A stretch of DNA of 51,538 bases, taken from the IMG/VR virus record IMGVR_UViG_3300048571_000060, positions 1 through 51,538 of that record; one strand, given 5' to 3'. Of this stretch, positions 38,379 to 46,693 are shown one piece after another. Each line of letters starts with the position of its first letter. The first letter of the stretch is position 1. Source of the DNA: a virus. Under the pieces are notes generated by a model. It did no database searches and was not told the DNA's origin. It saw nothing but the letters and a program-made list of their open reading frames with translations. The position numbers and the translations under genes are program-made.

Positions 38379-39089
38379 TTATACGCCTGTTTTTTGGTTC
38401 CAAATTACTATGTGAAGTCTTTCTGAATATCTGATGCCTTGTTGAATACATAGCTCAGCAACTATTGGTCTTGTCACAGCTAATTTGTCTTGTGTTTCGC
38501 CAGCTGGCATTAAACAGACGTTTGCCATATTAAGATGGTCACCATAGTCCTGCAAGATATCTATAAAATCTTCTTTTTGTGCGATTACAAATTTGAAAAT
38601 TATCTTTTTTCTAATCTGCGGTAAATTGTTTAAGAATTGAATCACTAATGGCTTGACTCTGCGTTCATATGGTTCGCCACTGTTTGCAAGTTTTGGAGAA
38701 CAGTTCCAATATTCAACATTAGAAATCATACCATCATTTGGCATAAGAGTTCCATTGGTTTCAACTTCTATGATTGGAAGAAAACCAAATTGTTCAAAAA
38801 ACCATTCAATGAACTCAACTATTTTCTTTTGATGCATAAGTGGCTCGCCGCCTGTAAACACCAAGTGAGCACCATATTTTAAAATTTGAACCTCCTCATC
38901 AGTAAACACTTCACTGAATGGTGTTTTTGTGCCCTTGCGCCATACTTCAATAGTATCGCAGACCCAACTGTCAGATTGACATAATATGTTACATCCTGAT
39001 AGACGTACAAAAATTGCCGGAATGCCCATTGTTTGGCCCTCGCCCTGAATACTGTAAAATTTTTCTGAAATAAATAAGTTATCTTTCAT
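38379..39089 (-). CDS. queE: 7-carboxy-7-deazaguanine synthase
   Basis: Radical SAM enzyme converting CPH4 to CDG. The start at 39087-39089 (MKDNLFISEKFYSIQGEG) is favoured because the earlier ATG at 39146 would give a 68-nt overlap. Motifs: FYSIQGEG (11-18), the cluster motif C33-x3-C37-x6-C44 (GCNILCQSDSWVCDT), WRKG, and SAM-binding TGGEPL (79-84). The third spacing differs from the common CX3CX2C by four residues. Overlaps the ParB-like gene by 11 nt. Confidence 0.92.
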   Translation of the reverse strand: MKDNLFISEKFYSIQGEGQTMGIPAIFVRLSGCNILCQSDSWVCDTIEVWRKGTKTPFSEVFTDEEVQILKYGAHLVFTGGEPLMHQKKIVEFIEWFFEQFGFLPIIEVETNGTLMPNDGMISNVEYWNCSPKLANSGEPYERRVKPLVIQFLNNLPQIRKKIIFKFVIAQKEDFIDILQDYGDHLNMANVCLMPAGETQDKLAVTRPIVAELCIQQGIRYSERLHIVIWNQKTGV

Positions 39090-39570
39090 CTTCAAATGGA
39101 TTAAATTGTGGATTAAATTGCATTCTATTAAACTCGTCCCAATCAAAATGAAGCAAAGTCATGTATCTTTCAACTGTTTGTTGGTCAAGTCCTGTTTTGT
39201 TTGATATAGTGGTTGGTTTGATTTCTAATTCTTTCAACCTTGCAACTGCTTGAGCGATACCAAGATAATCAAGTCTTGACTGATGCACATTAAGGGCAAT
39301 TCTATAAAGCTCGTATTCGCCTGGTTTCAATTCACCTAAATTGTAGCATAAGATTTTTTTAAGTCTGAGAGCCTTTAGTGTTTTGAAATACTTTCCACCG
39401 TCAACAATTAAGTATTGGCCATCATGTTCACAAACAGTGATTGATTTATACTGCCCAAAATGATTGTTGATTCTGTTCATTGTCACTGCCACGTTTTTGT
39501 CAATTGGCTCAACAGTGTGAAAGTTTGGCTTAATTATTTTGTCAGTTTTTAAAATTTCAAATCTTCCCAT
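39079..39570 (-). CDS. ParB-like DNA-binding protein, 163 aa
   Basis: An N-terminal ParB/sulfiredoxin-like domain (FGQYKSITVCEHDGQYLIVDGGKYFKTLKAL) with the DGG nucleotide-binding pocket pattern and a C-terminal HTH (LEIKPTTISNKTGLDQQTVERYMTL). Such proteins lie beside dpdA in several phage and bacterial 7-deazaguanine clusters. Here it is between QueE and the DpdA-like gene; it may direct modification or be a regulator. Confidence 0.72.
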   Translation of the reverse strand: MGRFEILKTDKIIKPNFHTVEPIDKNVAVTMNRINNHFGQYKSITVCEHDGQYLIVDGGKYFKTLKALRLKKILCYNLGELKPGEYELYRIALNVHQSRLDYLGIAQAVARLKELEIKPTTISNKTGLDQQTVERYMTLLHFDWDEFNRMQFNPQFNPFEDER

Positions 39571-40349
39571 ACGATACCTTTTTTATTCCAAAGTTGTGTG
39601 ATATATTCTTGTGTTTTTTTTGTTTCAATAATTGCTTTTTCAAGCCGTTGCCAATCGTCGTCGTAACATTCGATTGATTTCGCTTTAAATATGTCGTCTC
39701 GTTCACTAAAAGCCATTATAGGACGCGAATATCGTCCGAAAATTACCGTGCTTAATGGCGACGTAGAATCGACGCTAAAAAACGGATATCGTTCAATCAG
39801 CCCTGTTTTTGTCATTGCCAAACCGTGAACCTTAACTTTGTCACGAGTAATTGAAAATATCTTATCTAGATACGGTAACGAATCGTTCGCGATTAAAATA
39901 TAATCTTGACCTTCATTAACCCAATCCTGTAAGACGGTAAAAGTAGCATTGTCTAACGTCGGATGATATACGCGACAAAATTTAGCAACCAAACCATCTA
40001 ACGCCTGGACTTTGTAATACATTTCATCAATCTGCTCTTTTGGTAAATCAAGATAAACGTCAAACTCAACAAATACGAGTTTTCTATGTTTGTTTGCTTT
40101 AATGTATTCAAAGTATTCATCAATAAATTCACCAGCTGGTTTCAATTTTGTTTTACGCTTCATACCTATTGGCGTCATAGCGGCTTTGTTCCAACTATGA
40201 GCACCACTATCAACCATTAAAAAATATTCGTCATTCCAAGTGTCAATCTGCTTTCTTTCGTTAAGCATTGAATAGAGTTTTGGAACGTTGTGTTTGTAGC
40301 AGTTCAATTCACTGCCTCTGGTATCGCTACCAGCCACCATGATTAACAT
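39549..40349 (-). CDS. dpdA: DpdA-like DNA-guanine transglycosylase
   Basis: 266 aa, TIM-barrel TGT superfamily. Motifs: VDSGAHSW (46-53), EFDVYLDLP (95-103), VYHPT (127-131), IANDSL (153-158), VHGLAMTKTGLIERYPFFSVDSTS (174-197), with Asp47 and Asp194 as likely catalytic residues. DpdA enzymes replace guanine in DNA with a 7-deazaguanine. The gene is shorter than bacterial DpdA, in line with phage versions. It overlaps the glycosyltransferase gene by 7 nt. The substrate here is uncertain. Confidence 0.8.
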   Translation of the reverse strand: MLIMVAGSDTRGSELNCYKHNVPKLYSMLNERKQIDTWNDEYFLMVDSGAHSWNKAAMTPIGMKRKTKLKPAGEFIDEYFEYIKANKHRKLVFVEFDVYLDLPKEQIDEMYYKVQALDGLVAKFCRVYHPTLDNATFTVLQDWVNEGQDYILIANDSLPYLDKIFSITRDKVKVHGLAMTKTGLIERYPFFSVDSTSPLSTVIFGRYSRPIMAFSERDDIFKAKSIECYDDDWQRLEKAIIETKKTQEYITQLWNKKGIVWEDLKF

Positions 40350-41488
40350 TTTTCAATCAGTTTAGATATATAATAATGTTCATGCCATACATTGAATTCT
40401 TGATTTCCTATATCGTTTAACATTATGTAGGTTTTAAGTTTTCTACCTAAATCACAAATATATGCGACATTATGATGTTGTTGACGCTTGTGAATACAAT
40501 CGTTTAAAACCTTAACAGCAGATTCAACTTTGAATGGTTGATACAATCTGTCAGGATTTAAGATTTCAGGAAAGCTTCTAAAGTCAGGATAACATACGTC
40601 ACAATCAAACAGCGTGGCTTCAATTAAAGTCCAACTCACATAGTCTTGCAAAGCTGAATTAAATTGTACTTTACTTTTTTGAAGTTCAGTATAATATTCC
40701 TCTTTTGACAGTCCGGCTTTTAAAATAAACCTATCATTTTCAGACGCTATGTATTTCATATAATCAACAAAGCCAGGTATCGAGCTTTTAAACTCACTTC
40801 CAGACGTTGTAACAACCCATTTATAATCAGTATTTTCACGTAAAAAACGCAAAGCAGTTTCAACCATAAAATAAGGATTTTTTTCCTTATCTAATCTAGA
40901 TGTATAAATAATTTGGTCGCGTTTTGCGTAGATTTTTTCGCAAGTCTTAACGGCTAATTCCGCATGAATTGGCAATCCAACCACGTGAATTGGTGCTTTA
41001 AATCCGGCTTCACGAAGTTGTTGTTTATGGATGCCGCTACCAACGAAGATTCCTTTATGATAAGCATCAATACCAAGTTCAAAATGACGCATCCATTTTC
41101 TCATTGGGTGAGTAAAGTCATATTCGTCTACGCTTTGAGCGTGAAGCATTGAATAGACGTCAACTTTGATGTTATACAAATCAAGCATATAAAAGACTGA
41201 TTCAATTCCCGGCGTCCAAAAGTCCTGTAAATACAAAATGTCTCCGGTTTTTACAATTCCTCCAGATATAGCATTCATAAGCTGTTGGCATTGACTCATT
41301 GAATAAACTCCCCGACCATAAGCATCTAAAACTGAACCAACCCTAATTTCGTTGGTTTCAATTTCACCACGTAATTGAATAAAATTGATTTTCTTGCTTT
41401 TAAATGTTTCAGGAATCCATTGTTCGCTGAGCTGATAAGTGTATCGCTCTTTAAGTGGTTCAAGACCAAAGTACCATAAATTTCTCAT
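40343..41488 (-). CDS. GT-B glycosyltransferase (GT4-like), 381 aa
   Basis: A two-Rossmann architecture: N-terminal acceptor domain and C-terminal donor domain with SRLDKEKNPYFMV (197-209) and an E-x7-E-like SWTLIEATLFDCDVCYP (285-301), where the donor sugar nucleotide binds. It is translationally overlapped with the DpdA-like gene, and so probably acts in the same pathway, perhaps on the modified base. A protein or cell-surface target is the alternative. Confidence 0.8.
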   Translation of the reverse strand: MRNLWYFGLEPLKERYTYQLSEQWIPETFKSKKINFIQLRGEIETNEIRVGSVLDAYGRGVYSMSQCQQLMNAISGGIVKTGDILYLQDFWTPGIESVFYMLDLYNIKVDVYSMLHAQSVDEYDFTHPMRKWMRHFELGIDAYHKGIFVGSGIHKQQLREAGFKAPIHVVGLPIHAELAVKTCEKIYAKRDQIIYTSRLDKEKNPYFMVETALRFLRENTDYKWVVTTSGSEFKSSIPGFVDYMKYIASENDRFILKAGLSKEEYYTELQKSKVQFNSALQDYVSWTLIEATLFDCDVCYPDFRSFPEILNPDRLYQPFKVESAVKVLNDCIHKRQQHHNVAYICDLGRKLKTYIMLNDIGNQEFNVWHEHYYISKLIEKC

Positions 41489-41501
41489 AAACTGCTCAGT
41501 T

Positions 41502-41945
41502 TTAAATGTCGTGACGGTCGTGAATGTAGTCTTGACGGGTTACTTTTTGTCCATTGTGAAGCGTGAAACAATACATTTCGTGACTTCTAGGACACACTTT
41601 TATAGAATCGCTACTCTTTAGCTCAGCCAACTCTGGAACGTCAATCCAAAGCAGGATATGACATTTTAAAATCATGCTTTTTGGAATCTCTTTAATGTTG
41701 TCAGGCTTTGCTTCAAGCGTAAACATTTTTTTATCCTCGTCAATTAGCTTTTCAATAATTTCCCAGGTGATTTTTTGTTGAGTGTTTGTGCCTGACATTT
41801 TTGAAATCAACGTTGGACCAATTAGTATGTGGTTAAACTTTTTAACAACTGTTTCGAAAGTGTCAAAATCATCACTCACAAACAGCGTTTCCAATCCAAA
41901 AAGACGTCCTTCAATCTCTTTGCCGTACCAATATTTTTTTCTCAT
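41502..41945 (-). CDS. unknown protein of the modification cluster, 147 aa
   Basis: Begins MRKKYWYGKEIEGRLFGLET and has IIEKLIDEDKKMFTLEAKP, a beta-rich core (LKCHILLWIDVPELAELK) and a basic tail (RQDYIHDRHD). No family recognised. Its start overlaps the stop of the QueD-like gene (ATGA), so the two are probably made together. Candidate accessory enzyme of the base-modification pathway. Confidence 0.7.
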   Translation of the reverse strand: MRKKYWYGKEIEGRLFGLETLFVSDDFDTFETVVKKFNHILIGPTLISKMSGTNTQQKITWEIIEKLIDEDKKMFTLEAKPDNIKEIPKSMILKCHILLWIDVPELAELKSSDSIKVCPRSHEMYCFTLHNGQKVTRQDYIHDRHDI

Positions 41946-42289
41946 AGTTCAATAATGATTTCAGCTCCGTTTTCATTGTCCTCAAGAACTTTGCAGTAAT
42001 TGAGCTGAAAAGTTTCAATCAACCTAACTGCTATCATTTCACAGCTCATTGAGTTAAAATCATGCACTGATTTTTCATTGCCATACATTTTTTTCAACCA
42101 CAATGTGATTTCACGCTTTAATTCAATAATCTCAACATCCCTGTCAAGGTGTGTGACTGCTTTTTTGCATTCGATGTGAAAGATGTGTCTGTGAGGAAAT
42201 TTCAAGAATGAAACTTCTTCGATAGGGCACTCAGGCCAATGGTGAATGCCCTCTACTTGAAGATTTACAATGATATTACTTTTTTGCAT
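41942..42289 (-). CDS. small QueD-like (T-fold) protein, 115 aa
   Basis: Start at 42287-42289 (MQKSNIIVNLQVEG); the frame is open farther upstream but that part is a shadow of the 209-aa gene. The layout parallels QueD: FPHRHIFHI (HxH zinc-type pair), SCEMIAVRL (the TSE/GCE helix), and CKVLEDNENGAEIII (terminal strand). It lacks the QueD Cys before the HxH. I infer a divergent T-fold enzyme in the 7-deazaguanine pathway; substrate unknown. The overlap with the upstream gene is 14 nt. Confidence 0.65.
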   Translation of the reverse strand: MQKSNIIVNLQVEGIHHWPECPIEEVSFLKFPHRHIFHIECKKAVTHLDRDVEIIELKREITLWLKKMYGNEKSVHDFNSMSCEMIAVRLIETFQLNYCKVLEDNENGAEIIIEL

Positions 42290-42905
42290 TCTTTTTTGAT
42301 TTTTTATTTGATTTTTTATCCGTTGCAGGTTTGTCAGATGCTGTTGGCTTGTCTGCCGCAGGTTTGTCAGCGCCTTTTTTGTTTTTAGTAGCATCTGTTG
42401 CCAATTTGGCTTTGTGCAATTTGATAACGCTCCAAATTCTACCGTAAGACACATCATGTTTAGTGGCGTAGGCGTTGATGTCAAATTTTGCCGGGTCTTT
42501 GTCGTAATCTGCACGAACTTTGTCAAAGAATTTTTTGTCCAATTTTTTGTGATTGCTTAAATTTGATTTAGCTTTCTTTACCTCTTTAGGCTTGTCAGCC
42601 GCTTTGTTTTTTCCTTTGTCAGCCGCTTTTGGCTTGTCTGCTGACTTATCTGTCGCAGTTGCTTTAGGCTTGTCAGCTGTTTTGTCAGCGGCTTTTGGTT
42701 TATCGTCTGCCGTTGCTTTTGGTTTGGCTGTTTGAAAATAGCGTTCTTTCAAAACGTCTACTTTAAATGCTTTTCTTTCTCCGTTCACAGTCAAACGAAC
42801 TGTTCCTTTGTTTGCTGTTACTGGTAATTTTGTCAATCTGTTTGTGATTGTTCCGTCCTCACTCATATCGTAGTTAGGCGCTTCTGCTAATTTTAATGTT
42901 TTCAT
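42276..42905 (-). CDS. NUMOD-like/HTH protein with DKPKA repeats, 209 aa
   Basis: N-terminal APNYDMSEDGTITNRLTK with a NUMOD/homing-endonuclease-associated look, a middle linker of repeated DKPKA/ADK units (about 65-115), a helix-turn-helix-like segment (FDINAYATKHDVSYGRIWSVIKLHKAKL, near 142-169), and a second Lys-rich tail. Probably DNA-binding; could regulate the module or mark sites. It lies between the small gene at 42935 and the T-fold gene. Confidence 0.65.
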   Translation of the reverse strand: MKTLKLAEAPNYDMSEDGTITNRLTKLPVTANKGTVRLTVNGERKAFKVDVLKERYFQTAKPKATADDKPKAADKTADKPKATATDKSADKPKAADKGKNKAADKPKEVKKAKSNLSNHKKLDKKFFDKVRADYDKDPAKFDINAYATKHDVSYGRIWSVIKLHKAKLATDATKNKKGADKPAADKPTASDKPATDKKSNKKSKKNAKK

Positions 42906-42934
42906 GATACTCGTTTTTTAAGTTTTTAAAATAT

Positions 42935-43180
42935 TTATTTAATTAATTTGCCACAAAGTGGATAGATTCTCGTATAGTAATTGGTACCTGGTTTGATGTG
43001 CTTTGTTCCTTTAAATGTGATTTTCTCTTCAGCGATGTGGTCTTGTCTACTTGCATATCCAATACAGCCTCTGTCGTTGCTTTCAACGTTTTTAGTCCCT
43101 ATCAGTTTTCCATCTACTATATATTCAATGAAAAAGCCTAATTCTTCAAACCTTGTTTCGTGTAATGTATTTGAATCCAT
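42935..43180 (-). CDS. hypothetical protein, 81 aa
   Basis: The upstream ATG at 43222 lies in the promoter; the ATG at 43178-43180 (MDSNTLHETRFEELGFF) is chosen. Beta-rich with GCIGYASRQDHIAEEKI and a CGKL end. First gene behind the promoter at 43208-43246. No family recognised. Confidence 0.6.
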   Translation of the reverse strand: MDSNTLHETRFEELGFFIEYIVDGKLIGTKNVESNDRGCIGYASRQDHIAEEKITFKGTKHIKPGTNYYTRIYPLCGKLIK

Positions 43181-43207
43181 CTTGTTTGTGTTTGTTGTTC
43201 TACTCTG

Positions 43208-43246
43208 CGAATATATGAACAATATTTTAACCGCAAAACATTTTGC
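43208..43246 (-). promoter_or_regulatory. early promoter with perfect GCAAAA-NN-TTTTGC operator-like element
   Basis: TTTG (43237-43234), 18 bp, TATATTCG (43215-43208). The palindrome (43233-43246) is perfect here, with spacer TG. Drives the modification, clamp and primase genes. Confidence 0.75.
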
Positions 43247-43267
43247 AAACTTTTTTCAAGATTTTTT

Positions 43268-43753
43268 TTATTCAGCTATGTAAATCGCTGAATTCTTATC
43301 GTGCTCTATACATTCCACTGAAAGCAATTTTACTCGATTTTCTATAAAATCACTTTCAATTTGCTGTTCGATGAAGTCAAATACATACTTTGCAAAAGCT
43401 TCACAACCAACATTTGGCATAGTTCTTAATTGAATTAACTGCATTGTATCGAAGTCGTCAAAATATTCATACATAGGGTCATCACTTGCGACAACTGTTG
43501 TATGGTCAAACATATAATTGAACCAGTCTTTAATGGTTACAACTTTTTTAGGTAGTTTTCCTGGCGTGTTTTCTTTCAGCTTTGTTTTTAAAAATCCAAA
43601 GTCTTGGACCCAATTTTTATCATCAAGTCCTTTGGCTTGAAAGGTAAGTTTGAAACTAACTGAATATCCGTGTAAAAAGTTGCAATGCGAATTCGCTCGC
43701 CATTGTCTAAAACAGGTACTAAAACCGTCTACTAATTTAGTTGATTGATACAT
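43268..43753 (-). CDS. queD: 6-carboxy-tetrahydropterin synthase
   Basis: 161 aa. Converts dihydroneopterin triphosphate to CPH4. FSTCFRQWRANSHCNFLHGYSVSF holds catalytic Cys24 and His28 as in the FRQWRA subfamily, where HGH is replaced by HGY; NWVQDFGFLK, MFDHTTVV, GCEAFAKYVF and ECIEHDKNSAIYI follow. A zinc ligand of classical QueD appears replaced (Tyr30). 2 bp after folE. Confidence 0.88.
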   Translation of the reverse strand: MYQSTKLVDGFSTCFRQWRANSHCNFLHGYSVSFKLTFQAKGLDDKNWVQDFGFLKTKLKENTPGKLPKKVVTIKDWFNYMFDHTTVVASDDPMYEYFDDFDTMQLIQLRTMPNVGCEAFAKYVFDFIEQQIESDFIENRVKLLSVECIEHDKNSAIYIAE

Positions 43754-43755
43754 AA

Positions 43756-44406
43756 TTATTTAGTGTTTAAAAATTCGTTTCTTACTTCTTGATTTTCTTT
43801 AAACGACCCGCCCAATTTTCTTGTTGTGGTCCAGCAGTTTTTATCCTCAATCCCTCTTGCTTTAACGCAATGGTGAACAGCTCGTATTTCAACAGCTACG
43901 TCTTCAGTTTCCAAAATTAAAACCAATGCCGCTTGTATCTGCAAAGTCAAACGTTCCTGAATTTGAGGTCGCTTACTAAAAAACCTGACAATCCTGTTTA
44001 ATTTTGAAAGCCCCAAAACTTTGTCCTTTGGAATGTAGGCAACTTTGGCGACACCTTCAATGTTTTGAAAGTGATGCTCACACACACTACTCACATCAAC
44101 ACCGCCCTCAATAACCATTTCGTCAGCTTTGAATTTGTTATGCACGTTGGTACATTTTGGAAAGTGGTCATAATTTAATCCTTCAAAAATCTCACAGCTG
44201 AACATCTTTGCAATTCGCATTGGTGTATCCTGCAGACTGTCGTCATTTAAGTCAAGGCCTAACGCTTTCATAATGTGCGTAAAACTTTCCTCAATAATTG
44301 TTTTTTGCTCTTCAGTTTTGTATTTACCATTCACAAATGGCGTTTCAATACCAAGTTCCTTCAAATGTTCGTGAACCTGTTTTCCTAATTCCTTGTCTGT
44401 GTTCAT
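43756..44406 (-). CDS. folE: GTP cyclohydrolase I
   Basis: 216 aa, standard length. It makes dihydroneopterin triphosphate from GTP, the first step to 7-deazaguanines. Zinc site and active-site motifs: SVCEHHFQN (Cys/His), LSKLNRIVRFFSKRPQIQERLT, and HHCVKARGIED (last Cys). It opens the pathway with QueD next. Confidence 0.95.
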   Translation of the reverse strand: MNTDKELGKQVHEHLKELGIETPFVNGKYKTEEQKTIIEESFTHIMKALGLDLNDDSLQDTPMRIAKMFSCEIFEGLNYDHFPKCTNVHNKFKADEMVIEGGVDVSSVCEHHFQNIEGVAKVAYIPKDKVLGLSKLNRIVRFFSKRPQIQERLTLQIQAALVLILETEDVAVEIRAVHHCVKARGIEDKNCWTTTRKLGGSFKENQEVRNEFLNTK

Positions 44407-46321: not shown

Positions 46322-46693
46322 TTATTGAGTGGTTAATGTTATTGTTCCTTTTCTTACCTCTGCATGAATGACGTTCTTAACTACAATTCTTTGCGTGGCC
46401 GTCAATTGGCTTTGTTTTTGCATTATGAGGTTATATTCTTTTAAATATTCACCAAGCGTCTTAAATGGCATTTTAGGCACTTTGCTCATCAGCATTGGTT
46501 TCGTAAAATTCATAAATGCACTATACTCTTCATCAGTCTTGAATGACTCACGTGTTACAGGTATGGGTACTTTTTGAATTGGTTTTGGGACGATTACAGG
46601 TTTGACTGTTTGCTTATTAGCTCTAGATATTGCAATTGTTTTGCCGTGGTCTACGTGACCAATCGTGCCTAATGGTATTACTTTCTTTGCCAT
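46322..46693 (-). CDS. small protein with EF-Tu-like P-loop motif, 123 aa
   Basis: Starts MAKKVIPLGTIGHVDHGKT (motif at 10-19), identical to the G1 loop of translational GTPases; yet the rest (EEYSAFMNFTKPMLMSKVPKMPFKTLGEYLKEYN) has no G2-G5 motifs. It may be a cut-down nucleotide-binding or mimic protein. Promoter -7 box at 46699-46706. Confidence 0.65.
   Translation of the reverse strand: MAKKVIPLGTIGHVDHGKTIAISRANKQTVKPVIVPKPIQKVPIPVTRESFKTDEEYSAFMNFTKPMLMSKVPKMPFKTLGEYLKEYNLIMQKQSQLTATQRIVVKNVIHAEVRKGTITLTTQ

What the first reader, a model, noticed from the sequence alone, without database searches (positions are those of the whole stretch)
38379..44406. 7-deazaguanine DNA hypermodification locus lacking QueC
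FolE, QueD, QueE and a DpdA-like transglycosylase are present, but no QueC, which normally turns CDG into preQ0, is seen anywhere in the window. If the host QueC does not supply preQ0, the inserted base could be CDG itself or a product such as 7-deazaguanine. Known phage 7-deazaguanine DNA bases include several besides preQ0. Modified DNA would block host restriction enzymes.
Basis: partly seen in the sequence, partly recalled or inferred. Interest (0 to 1): 0.88.

Follow-up and report, generated by a model that had tools for sequence, protein, structure and literature searches.

The report
Phage deazaguanine locus with coupled glycosyltransferase
This virus of Flavobacteria-type bacteria carries the genes to swap guanine in its DNA for a 7-deazaguanine relative, and where its cousins carry the usual nitrile-making enzyme (QueC) it carries a QueD-like protein and a sugar-adding enzyme, a combination repeated in about a hundred unrelated viruses and probably used to make a sugar-coated DNA base that hides the virus from host restriction enzymes.

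Summary
In detail: FolE, QueD, QueE and a divergent DpdA lie at 38379-44406 (- strand), and the record has no QueC. Between QueD and DpdA is a translationally coupled run: a QueD-fold paralog (phrog_17812), an unknown 147-aa protein (U147), and a GT4-type glycosyltransferase (GT). Syntenic Cellulophaga phage phiSM has QueC+QueF there instead. phrog_17812 is in 147 distinct loci, 102 of them with the GT, none with QueC; 72 distinct QueC+ pathway loci have neither. GT+ loci include Xanthomonas X1, Acidovorax ACP17, Synechococcus BUCT-ZZ01 and Pseudomonas PA5oct-type phages. AlphaFold2/Foldseek put phrog_17812 on E. coli QueD (TM 0.72) and the GT on BshA/MshA; donor residues R198, K203, E290 are invariant. 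Only 1 of 80 genomes from the likely host family has full-length QueC. Best reading: CDG is diverted by phrog_17812 (probably decarboxylated), inserted by DpdA and glycosylated. A QueC-less CDG/deazaguanine phage is already known; the glycosyltransferase coupling I found in no paper held. No chemistry was shown.

The parts
43756..44406 (-). FolE, GTP cyclohydrolase I (GTP to H2NTP)
   Evidence: PF01227 7.6e-58, phrog_2197 1e-73
43268..43753 (-). QueD, 6-carboxytetrahydropterin synthase
   Evidence: PF01242 5e-14, phrog_2389 1e-42; 2 bp after FolE
41942..42289 (-). phrog_17812 family, QueD-fold (T-fold) paralog of 115 aa; proposed QueC-alternative CDG-processing enzyme, perhaps a decarboxylase
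   Evidence: phrog_17812 8e-22; AF2 pLDDT 96, Foldseek best match E. coli QueD 4ntk TM 0.72; H18, H35, H37, C85, E105 invariant; in 147 distinct loci, 0 with QueC
41502..41945 (-). U147, unknown 147-aa protein, recurrent GT partner
   Evidence: 4-bp overlap with phrog_17812; about 40 relatives, nearly all beside the GT or phrog_17812
40343..41488 (-). GT4-type (GT-B fold) glycosyltransferase
   Evidence: AF2 pLDDT 95; Foldseek best matches BshA, MshA, SenB E about 1e-11 to 1e-10; R198, K203, E290 invariant in 47 homologs; L001 relative hits PF00534 1.2e-8
39549..40349 (-). DpdA-like DNA guanine transglycosylase
   Evidence: phrog_887 4.8e-16; family profile hits DNA-guanine transglycosylase 7ui4 E=0.005; D47, D97, H175, D194 invariant; 7-bp overlap with the GT
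39079..39570 (-). ParB-like protein, probable DNA-targeting or DpdA partner
   Evidence: phrog_16545 2.5e-7; 22-bp overlap with DpdA; present in most loci with this DpdA type
38379..39089 (-). QueE, 7-carboxy-7-deazaguanine (CDG) synthase
   Evidence: phrog_2076 1.3e-55; 57% identical to phiSM QueE; overlaps ParB by 11 bp

Best explanation
The locus is a QueC-independent 7-deazaguanine DNA hypermodification operon. FolE, QueD and QueE make CDG (inferred from family membership). Instead of QueC turning CDG into preQ0, the QueD-fold phrog_17812 protein processes CDG, most simply by removing the carboxylate to give 7-deazaguanine (inferred). DpdA, probably guided by the ParB-like protein, exchanges guanine in phage DNA for this base. 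The GT4-type glycosyltransferase, with U147 in this lineage, then adds a sugar from a host nucleotide-sugar to the inserted base. The order of insertion and glycosylation, the sugar and the attachment atom are unknown. The product would be a bulky glycosylated 7-deazaguanine that blocks host restriction. Shown here: the genes, their coupling, folds, conserved catalytic residues, and the mutual exclusion of phrog_17812/GT with QueC. Not shown: any reaction or any modified base.
For: (1) Operon: phrog_17812, U147, GT, DpdA, ParB and QueE are co-directional with overlaps of 4, 7, 22 and 11 bp and one 13-bp gap. (2) Natural swap: phiSM, whose terminase and sheath are 75% and 68% identical, has QueC and QueF in this interval and no GT or phrog_17812 (whole-record QueC search). 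(3) GT homologs from very distant phages sit beside FolE/QueD/QueE/DpdA-type genes and no QueC: BUCT-ZZ01, X1, ACP17, Phosso, PAC2. (4) Of 147 distinct phrog_17812+ loci, 102 have GT and 0 QueC; of 72 distinct QueC+ loci with another pathway gene, 0 have phrog_17812 or GT; whole-record searches agree. (5) Each of three transglycosylase types (window type, phrog_10773 type, phiST type) occurs with QueC or with phrog_17812, never both, so phrog_17812 behaves as a QueC alternative. (6) phrog_17812+ loci carry either the GT (102) or the phiST-type transglycosylase (30), never both. (7) Structures and invariant residues. (8) Likely hosts nearly always lack QueC.
Against: No chemical or biochemical evidence. 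The GT acceptor is inferred only from genomic coupling. If phrog_17812 decarboxylates CDG, the product has no obvious O or N handle at C7, so glycosylation would have to be a C-glycosylation or use another atom; if it does not, the carboxylate could carry the sugar as an ester. The window GT has D282 where most homologs have the first E of the EX7E motif. The window DpdA is divergent and matches only the C-terminal part of phrog_887. Loci are phylogenetically related, so P-values overstate independence. PhiXhv-15 carries a distant GT homolog with a Gat-QueC, and Vibrio phage D479 carries phrog_17812 and a partial QueC-like hit far away.
Confidence: 0.55

Rival explanations
1. The DNA carries bare CDG or 7-deazaguanine (dCDG/dDG), and the glycosyltransferase modifies something else, such as host surface polysaccharide or a protein.
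For: FolE, QueD, QueE and DpdA without QueC would be enough for dCDG; with a CDG decarboxylase, for dDG. phiST-type loci have phrog_17812 and no GT. GT4 enzymes often work on polysaccharides, and Foldseek hits include such enzymes.
Against: The GT was on the same strand as phrog_17812 in all 102 loci holding both (median gap about 185 bp) and was absent from all 72 QueC+ loci. It is translationally coupled to DpdA in the window. Its N-terminal, acceptor-side residues are invariant across phages of unrelated hosts, unlike surface-glycan GTs.
Confidence: 0.25
2. Host QueC supplies preQ0 and the phage DNA carries dPreQ0; the phage genes merely boost flux.
For: Phages commonly encode partial pathways (PMC6884629); a host QueC could act on phage-made CDG.
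Against: Full-length QueC in only 1 of 80 genomes of the likely host family. The closest relative phiSM brings its own QueC. phrog_17812 and QueC never co-occur nearby.
Confidence: 0.06
3. phrog_17812 or U147 is an unrecognised analog of QueC that makes preQ0 (or an amide) from CDG, so the pathway is ordinary and only one enzyme is replaced.
For: phrog_17812 takes the place of QueC next to three different transglycosylase types.
Against: A 115-aa T-fold protein with no ATP-binding motif is an unlikely nitrile synthase; phiSM's QueF, which would use preQ0, is absent together with QueC; this leaves the GT unexplained.
Confidence: 0.07
4. The pathway modifies tRNA rather than DNA, giving a glycosylated queuosine-like base.
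For: Glycosylated queuosines exist in animal tRNA (general knowledge), and TGT is homologous to DpdA (PMC6884629).
Against: The transglycosylase belongs to the phage DpdA group and its profile hits DNA-guanine transglycosylase 7ui4. It travels with a ParB-like protein. No QueA/QueG-type enzyme appears among the locus annotations.
Confidence: 0.05

Closest known systems
Cellulophaga phage phiSM (KC821616) 7-deazaguanine cluster
   Same: Same phage backbone and the same FolE, DpdA, ParB, QueD, QueE set, followed by DNA polymerase III beta and VirE/primase.
   Different: phiSM has QueC, QueF and a CxxCxxCC protein and no phrog_17812, U147 or GT; the window has the reverse.
Cellulophaga phage phiST (NC_020842) cluster
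   Same: FolE, QueD, QueE and phrog_17812, no QueC. Recalled, not verified, as part of the dCDG/dDG work of Cui 2023.
   Different: phiST has no GT; it has a different TGT-like protein (CGPG_00065), an AAA_18 kinase-like protein and MazG.
Mycobacterium phage Bipper, QueC-less preQ0-group phage (Hutinet 2019, PMC6884629)
   Same: FolE, QueD, QueE and DpdA without QueC; CDG proposed as a possible base.
   Different: The tblastn searches with the window's phrog_17812 and GT returned no Bipper match.
Phage DNA glycosyltransferases of T4 type (5-hmC glucosylation)
   Same: Would be a post-replicative sugar on a modified base that blocks restriction (PMC13216743 abstract; PMC13390438).
   Different: Here the base would be a 7-deazaguanine; the GT is a GT4-type enzyme nearest BshA/MshA by fold. 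No paper held joins a GT with DpdA in this way.
E. coli QueD / 6-pyruvoyltetrahydropterin synthase (for phrog_17812)
   Same: T-fold, TM 0.72; zinc-type histidines H18, H35, H37 and glutamate E105 invariant.
   Different: By motif alignment an invariant Leu stands where QueD has its catalytic Cys, and the Asp-His dyad is missing; a new invariant S-C-E motif (S84, C85, E86) appears.

Membership tests
Phage 7-deazaguanine DNA modification (DpdA) systems | FolE, QueD, QueE homologs | tested here: met
Phage 7-deazaguanine DNA modification (DpdA) systems | DpdA/TGT-family transglycosylase with two catalytic-type Asp | tested here: met
   phrog_887 4.8e-16; D47 and D194 invariant; profile hits 7ui4 E=0.005; profile-profile match to the TGT-like phrog_10773 family E=5e-7
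Phage 7-deazaguanine DNA modification (DpdA) systems | Modified base present in virion DNA | not testable with these tools
   Needs LC-MS
preQ0 / preQ1 / archaeosine subtype | QueC, Gat-QueC or QueF encoded | tested here: not met
   No PF06508 hit in the record; no QueF found among the locus genes
dCDG/dDG subtype (Cui 2023) | QueC absent, CDG decarboxylase (DpdL) present for dDG | tested here: inconclusive
   QueC absent. phrog_17812 is the candidate, but the DpdL sequence could not be compared because the paper is not held
GT4 / GT-B retaining glycosyltransferase | GT-B fold | tested here: met
GT4 / GT-B retaining glycosyltransferase | Donor-site R, K and EX7E glutamates | tested here: met
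   R198, K203, E290 invariant in 47 homologs; first E of EX7E is D282 in the window
GT4 / GT-B retaining glycosyltransferase | Sugar transfer to a deazaguanine in DNA | not testable with these tools
   Inferred from coupling only
QueD (6-carboxytetrahydropterin synthase), for phrog_17812 | T-fold and zinc histidines | tested here: met
QueD (6-carboxytetrahydropterin synthase), for phrog_17812 | Catalytic Cys and Asp-His dyad | tested here: not met
   Not conserved in 45-54 relatives, placed by motif alignment; so a paralog, not a QueD

The most novel reading that the evidence does not exclude
A widespread, unrecognised class of phage DNA hypermodification: 7-deazaguanine made from CDG without QueC by a QueD-fold enzyme, inserted by DpdA and glycosylated by a dedicated GT4-type enzyme, giving a sugar-bearing (possibly C-glycosylated) deazaguanine in DNA.
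Probability: 0.45. Interest if true: 0.87.

Novelty: new variant of a known kind. Interest (0 to 1): 0.74.

Why it matters
Glycosylated pyrimidines are well known in phage DNA; I found no report of a glycosylated purine analog in the papers held. The cassette occurs in cultured phages (X1, ACP17, BUCT-ZZ01, PA5oct relatives), so the prediction can be tested at once by mass spectrometry. It would add a new base chemistry relevant to restriction and CRISPR evasion, a QueC-independent branch of the deazaguanine pathway with a candidate enzyme family (phrog_17812, listed as unknown function) present in more than 570 viral-contig stretches, and an explanation for phages that look as if they have an incomplete preQ0 pathway.

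Tried and rejected
Megablast of the 30000-51538 region against phage records: no match. A DpdA-only scan of IMG/VR found one relative because DpdA is too divergent; the GT and phrog_17812 scans worked. PF00534 misses the window GT (0.032; none in the record), so the GT assignment rests on homologs and structure. Three apparent QueC hits in phrog_17812+ loci (L076, L091, L094) are TilS-like by sequence; the PF06508 search agrees for the L076 record, L091 and L094 were not searched. A home-made phosphoribosyltransferase profile drifted (211-212 hits) and was not used. Raw QueC hits in the likely host family looked common (61 of 80) but nearly all are short hits to other PP-loop proteins; one is full-length. 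PHROGs gave no hit for U147 and Pfam/NCBIfam only weak sub-threshold ones. Cui 2023 and the 2024 MMBR review are not held. Chance occurrence was rejected: intact coupled ORFs and synteny with phiSM.
Full report
OBSERVATION. The window is an IMG/VR virus record of 51,538 bases. On the - strand, FolE (43756-44406), QueD (43268-43753), QueE (38379-39089) and a DpdA-like protein (39549-40349) are intact ORFs with clear family matches. QueC (PF06508) gives no hit anywhere in the record. The record is close in size to its nearest relatives, Cellulophaga phages phiSM/phi3:1 (54.0-54.6 kb; terminase 74.5% and tail sheath 67.9% identical), so absence through truncation is possible but unlikely.

Between QueD and DpdA lie a phrog_17812 protein (41942-42289), an unknown 147-aa protein U147 (41502-41945) and a 381-aa protein (40343-41488) that proves to be a glycosyltransferase. 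From phrog_17812 to QueE the genes overlap by 4, 7, 22 and 11 bp, with one 13-bp gap between U147 and GT, which indicates one translationally coupled operon. phiSM has the same backbone (FolE, DpdA, ParB, QueD, QueE, DNA polymerase III beta, VirE/primase) but carries QueC and QueF and no phrog_17812, U147 or GT. The window therefore does not merely lack QueC: a QueC+QueF version of the locus has a phrog_17812+U147+GT counterpart.

THE GLYCOSYLTRANSFERASE. Pfam scores it below threshold (PF00534, 0.032), but its homolog in the sibling contig L001 passes (1.2e-8; pairwise E=6e-33). AlphaFold2 with 47 homologs gives pLDDT 95. Foldseek against the PDB ranks GT4 enzymes BshA, MshA and SenB among the best, E about 1e-11 to 1e-10. 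R198, K203 and E290, the donor-site residues expected of GT4, are invariant, as are N-terminal, acceptor-side E10, R15, Y16, Q66, D89, D124 and E137. The window has D282 where most homologs have the first E of EX7E.

phrog_17812. AlphaFold2 gives pLDDT 96 and Foldseek puts it on E. coli QueD (TM 0.72) ahead of other T-fold enzymes. H18, H35 and H37 (zinc-type), C85 and E105 are invariant in 45-54 sequences. By motif alignment with E. coli QueD (residue roles from general knowledge), the catalytic Cys is replaced by an invariant Leu and the Asp-His dyad is not conserved. It is thus a QueD paralog with changed chemistry. The same invariants hold in members with and without an adjacent GT, which suggests one reaction.

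COMPARATIVE GENOMICS. I scanned viral contigs with the GT, phrog_17812, QueE and QueC alignments, one genome collection with phrog_17812, and read annotated phage records. After removing duplicates, 147 loci have phrog_17812; 102 of these have the GT, always on the same strand, and none has QueC. Independently, 72 distinct QueC+ loci with another pathway gene (67 with a dpdA) have neither phrog_17812 nor GT. Whole-record PF06508 searches agree. The exceptions are PhiXhv-15 (a Gat-QueC beside a distant GT homolog, no phrog_17812) and Vibrio phage D479 (phrog_17812 plus a partial QueC-like hit about 100 kb away, no GT). In the phrog_17812-selected sample the GT is in 49 of 76 distinct loci. phrog_17812+ loci carry either the GT or a phiST-type TGT-like protein, never both (102, 30, 0). 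All three transglycosylase types also occur in QueC+ loci, so phrog_17812 and QueC look like alternative consumers of CDG. P-values are not corrected for common descent and the samples were chosen by query, so the weight lies in zero co-occurrence from both directions and in the spread over unrelated phages.

HOST. The backbone points to Flavobacteriaceae. In 80 genomes of the family of a Flavobacterium MAG that carries the same cassette (L204), only one has a full-length QueC; other hits are short matches to other PP-loop proteins. If that is the host group, preQ0 cannot be borrowed. The exact host is unknown.

MECHANISM. Shown: gene content, order, coupling, folds, conserved residues, mutual exclusion with QueC. 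Inferred from families: GTP to CDG by FolE, QueD and QueE; insertion by DpdA. Inferred from coupling: phrog_17812 diverts CDG, most simply by decarboxylation to 7-deazaguanine; the GT adds a sugar to the base. Unknown: sugar, atom, whether the GT acts before or after insertion, and the roles of U147 and ParB. The order base-insertion-then-glycosylation is preferred by analogy with phage DNA glucosyltransferases.

COMPARISON AND NOVELTY. A QueC-less phage possibly carrying CDG was proposed in 2019 (Bipper; PMC6884629). From memory, Cui et al. 2023 (gkad657) found dCDG and dDG, new DpdA subfamilies and a CDG decarboxylase DpdL; I could only confirm that the paper exists, so phrog_17812 may be DpdL or a relative and may not be new. 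A carboxyl group as a handle for hypermodification has precedent for cytosine (PMC12783734). Searches of the held library for DpdA or deazaguanine together with a glycosyltransferase found nothing on this coupling, and the jumbo-phage review that lists PA5oct's deazaguanine system does not mention it in the passages found (PMC7824862). I therefore file it as a new variant of a known kind: DpdA-type 7-deazaguanine modification with a coupled glycosyltransferase.

VERDICT. Observation confirmed; interpretation partly supported; best explanation 0.55. The absence of QueC alone would deserve little, since it is precedented. The recurrent glycosyltransferase module raises the interest to 0.74.

Noticed in passing
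L037 (Xanthomonas phage PhiXhv-15) 1588-9993: A Gat-QueC fusion, a BshB2-like (PIG-L type) deacetylase, a distant relative of the GT and a leucyl/phenylalanyl-tRNA transferase lie in one run; this could be an archaeosine-type base carrying a deacetylated and aminoacylated aminosugar.
   Followed up: no
L228 8047-11424: Aurantimonas sp. VKM B-3413 contig carries a DpdA (phrog_10773-like), a weak Vut_1-type transporter match, phrog_17812 and the GT side by side, without FolE/QueD/QueE profile hits within 10 kb; a full-length QueC was not found in that genome.
   Followed up: partly
L001 8293-9009; also L017, L018, L020, L072, L203: A radical SAM/SPASM enzyme sits between phrog_17812 and the GT in several loci; it may be a further tailoring enzyme.
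   Followed up: partly
L032 5010-6350; also L076, L089, L104, L112: A second, different GT-family gene lies in the same cluster in some phages, as if a disaccharide were built.
   Followed up: partly
L036 10785-11740; L032 3093-3554: A sugar-nucleotide epimerase fragment and a phosphoribosyltransferase (PAC2), and a xanthine-guanine phosphoribosyltransferase (BUCT-ZZ01), lie beside QueE, hinting at nucleotide-level steps.
   Followed up: no
L116 9415-11577 (phiST), L122, L117, L119: phrog_17812 without GT goes with another TGT-like family (CGPG_00065), in several loci beside an AAA_18 kinase-like protein or MazG, suggesting a nucleotide-level route.
   Followed up: partly
Flavobacteriaceae genomes: Only 1 of 80 genomes has a full-length QueC, so the family seems to lack de novo preQ0 synthesis.
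   Followed up: partly
window 46322-46693: A 123-aa phage protein begins with an elongation-factor-like motif, GTIGHVDHGKT, and then diverges; origin unknown.
   Followed up: no
window 42276-42905 and L001 7325-7951: A K/A/D-rich low-complexity protein upstream of phrog_17812; in L001 it holds a long tandem TVKADK repeat.
   Followed up: no
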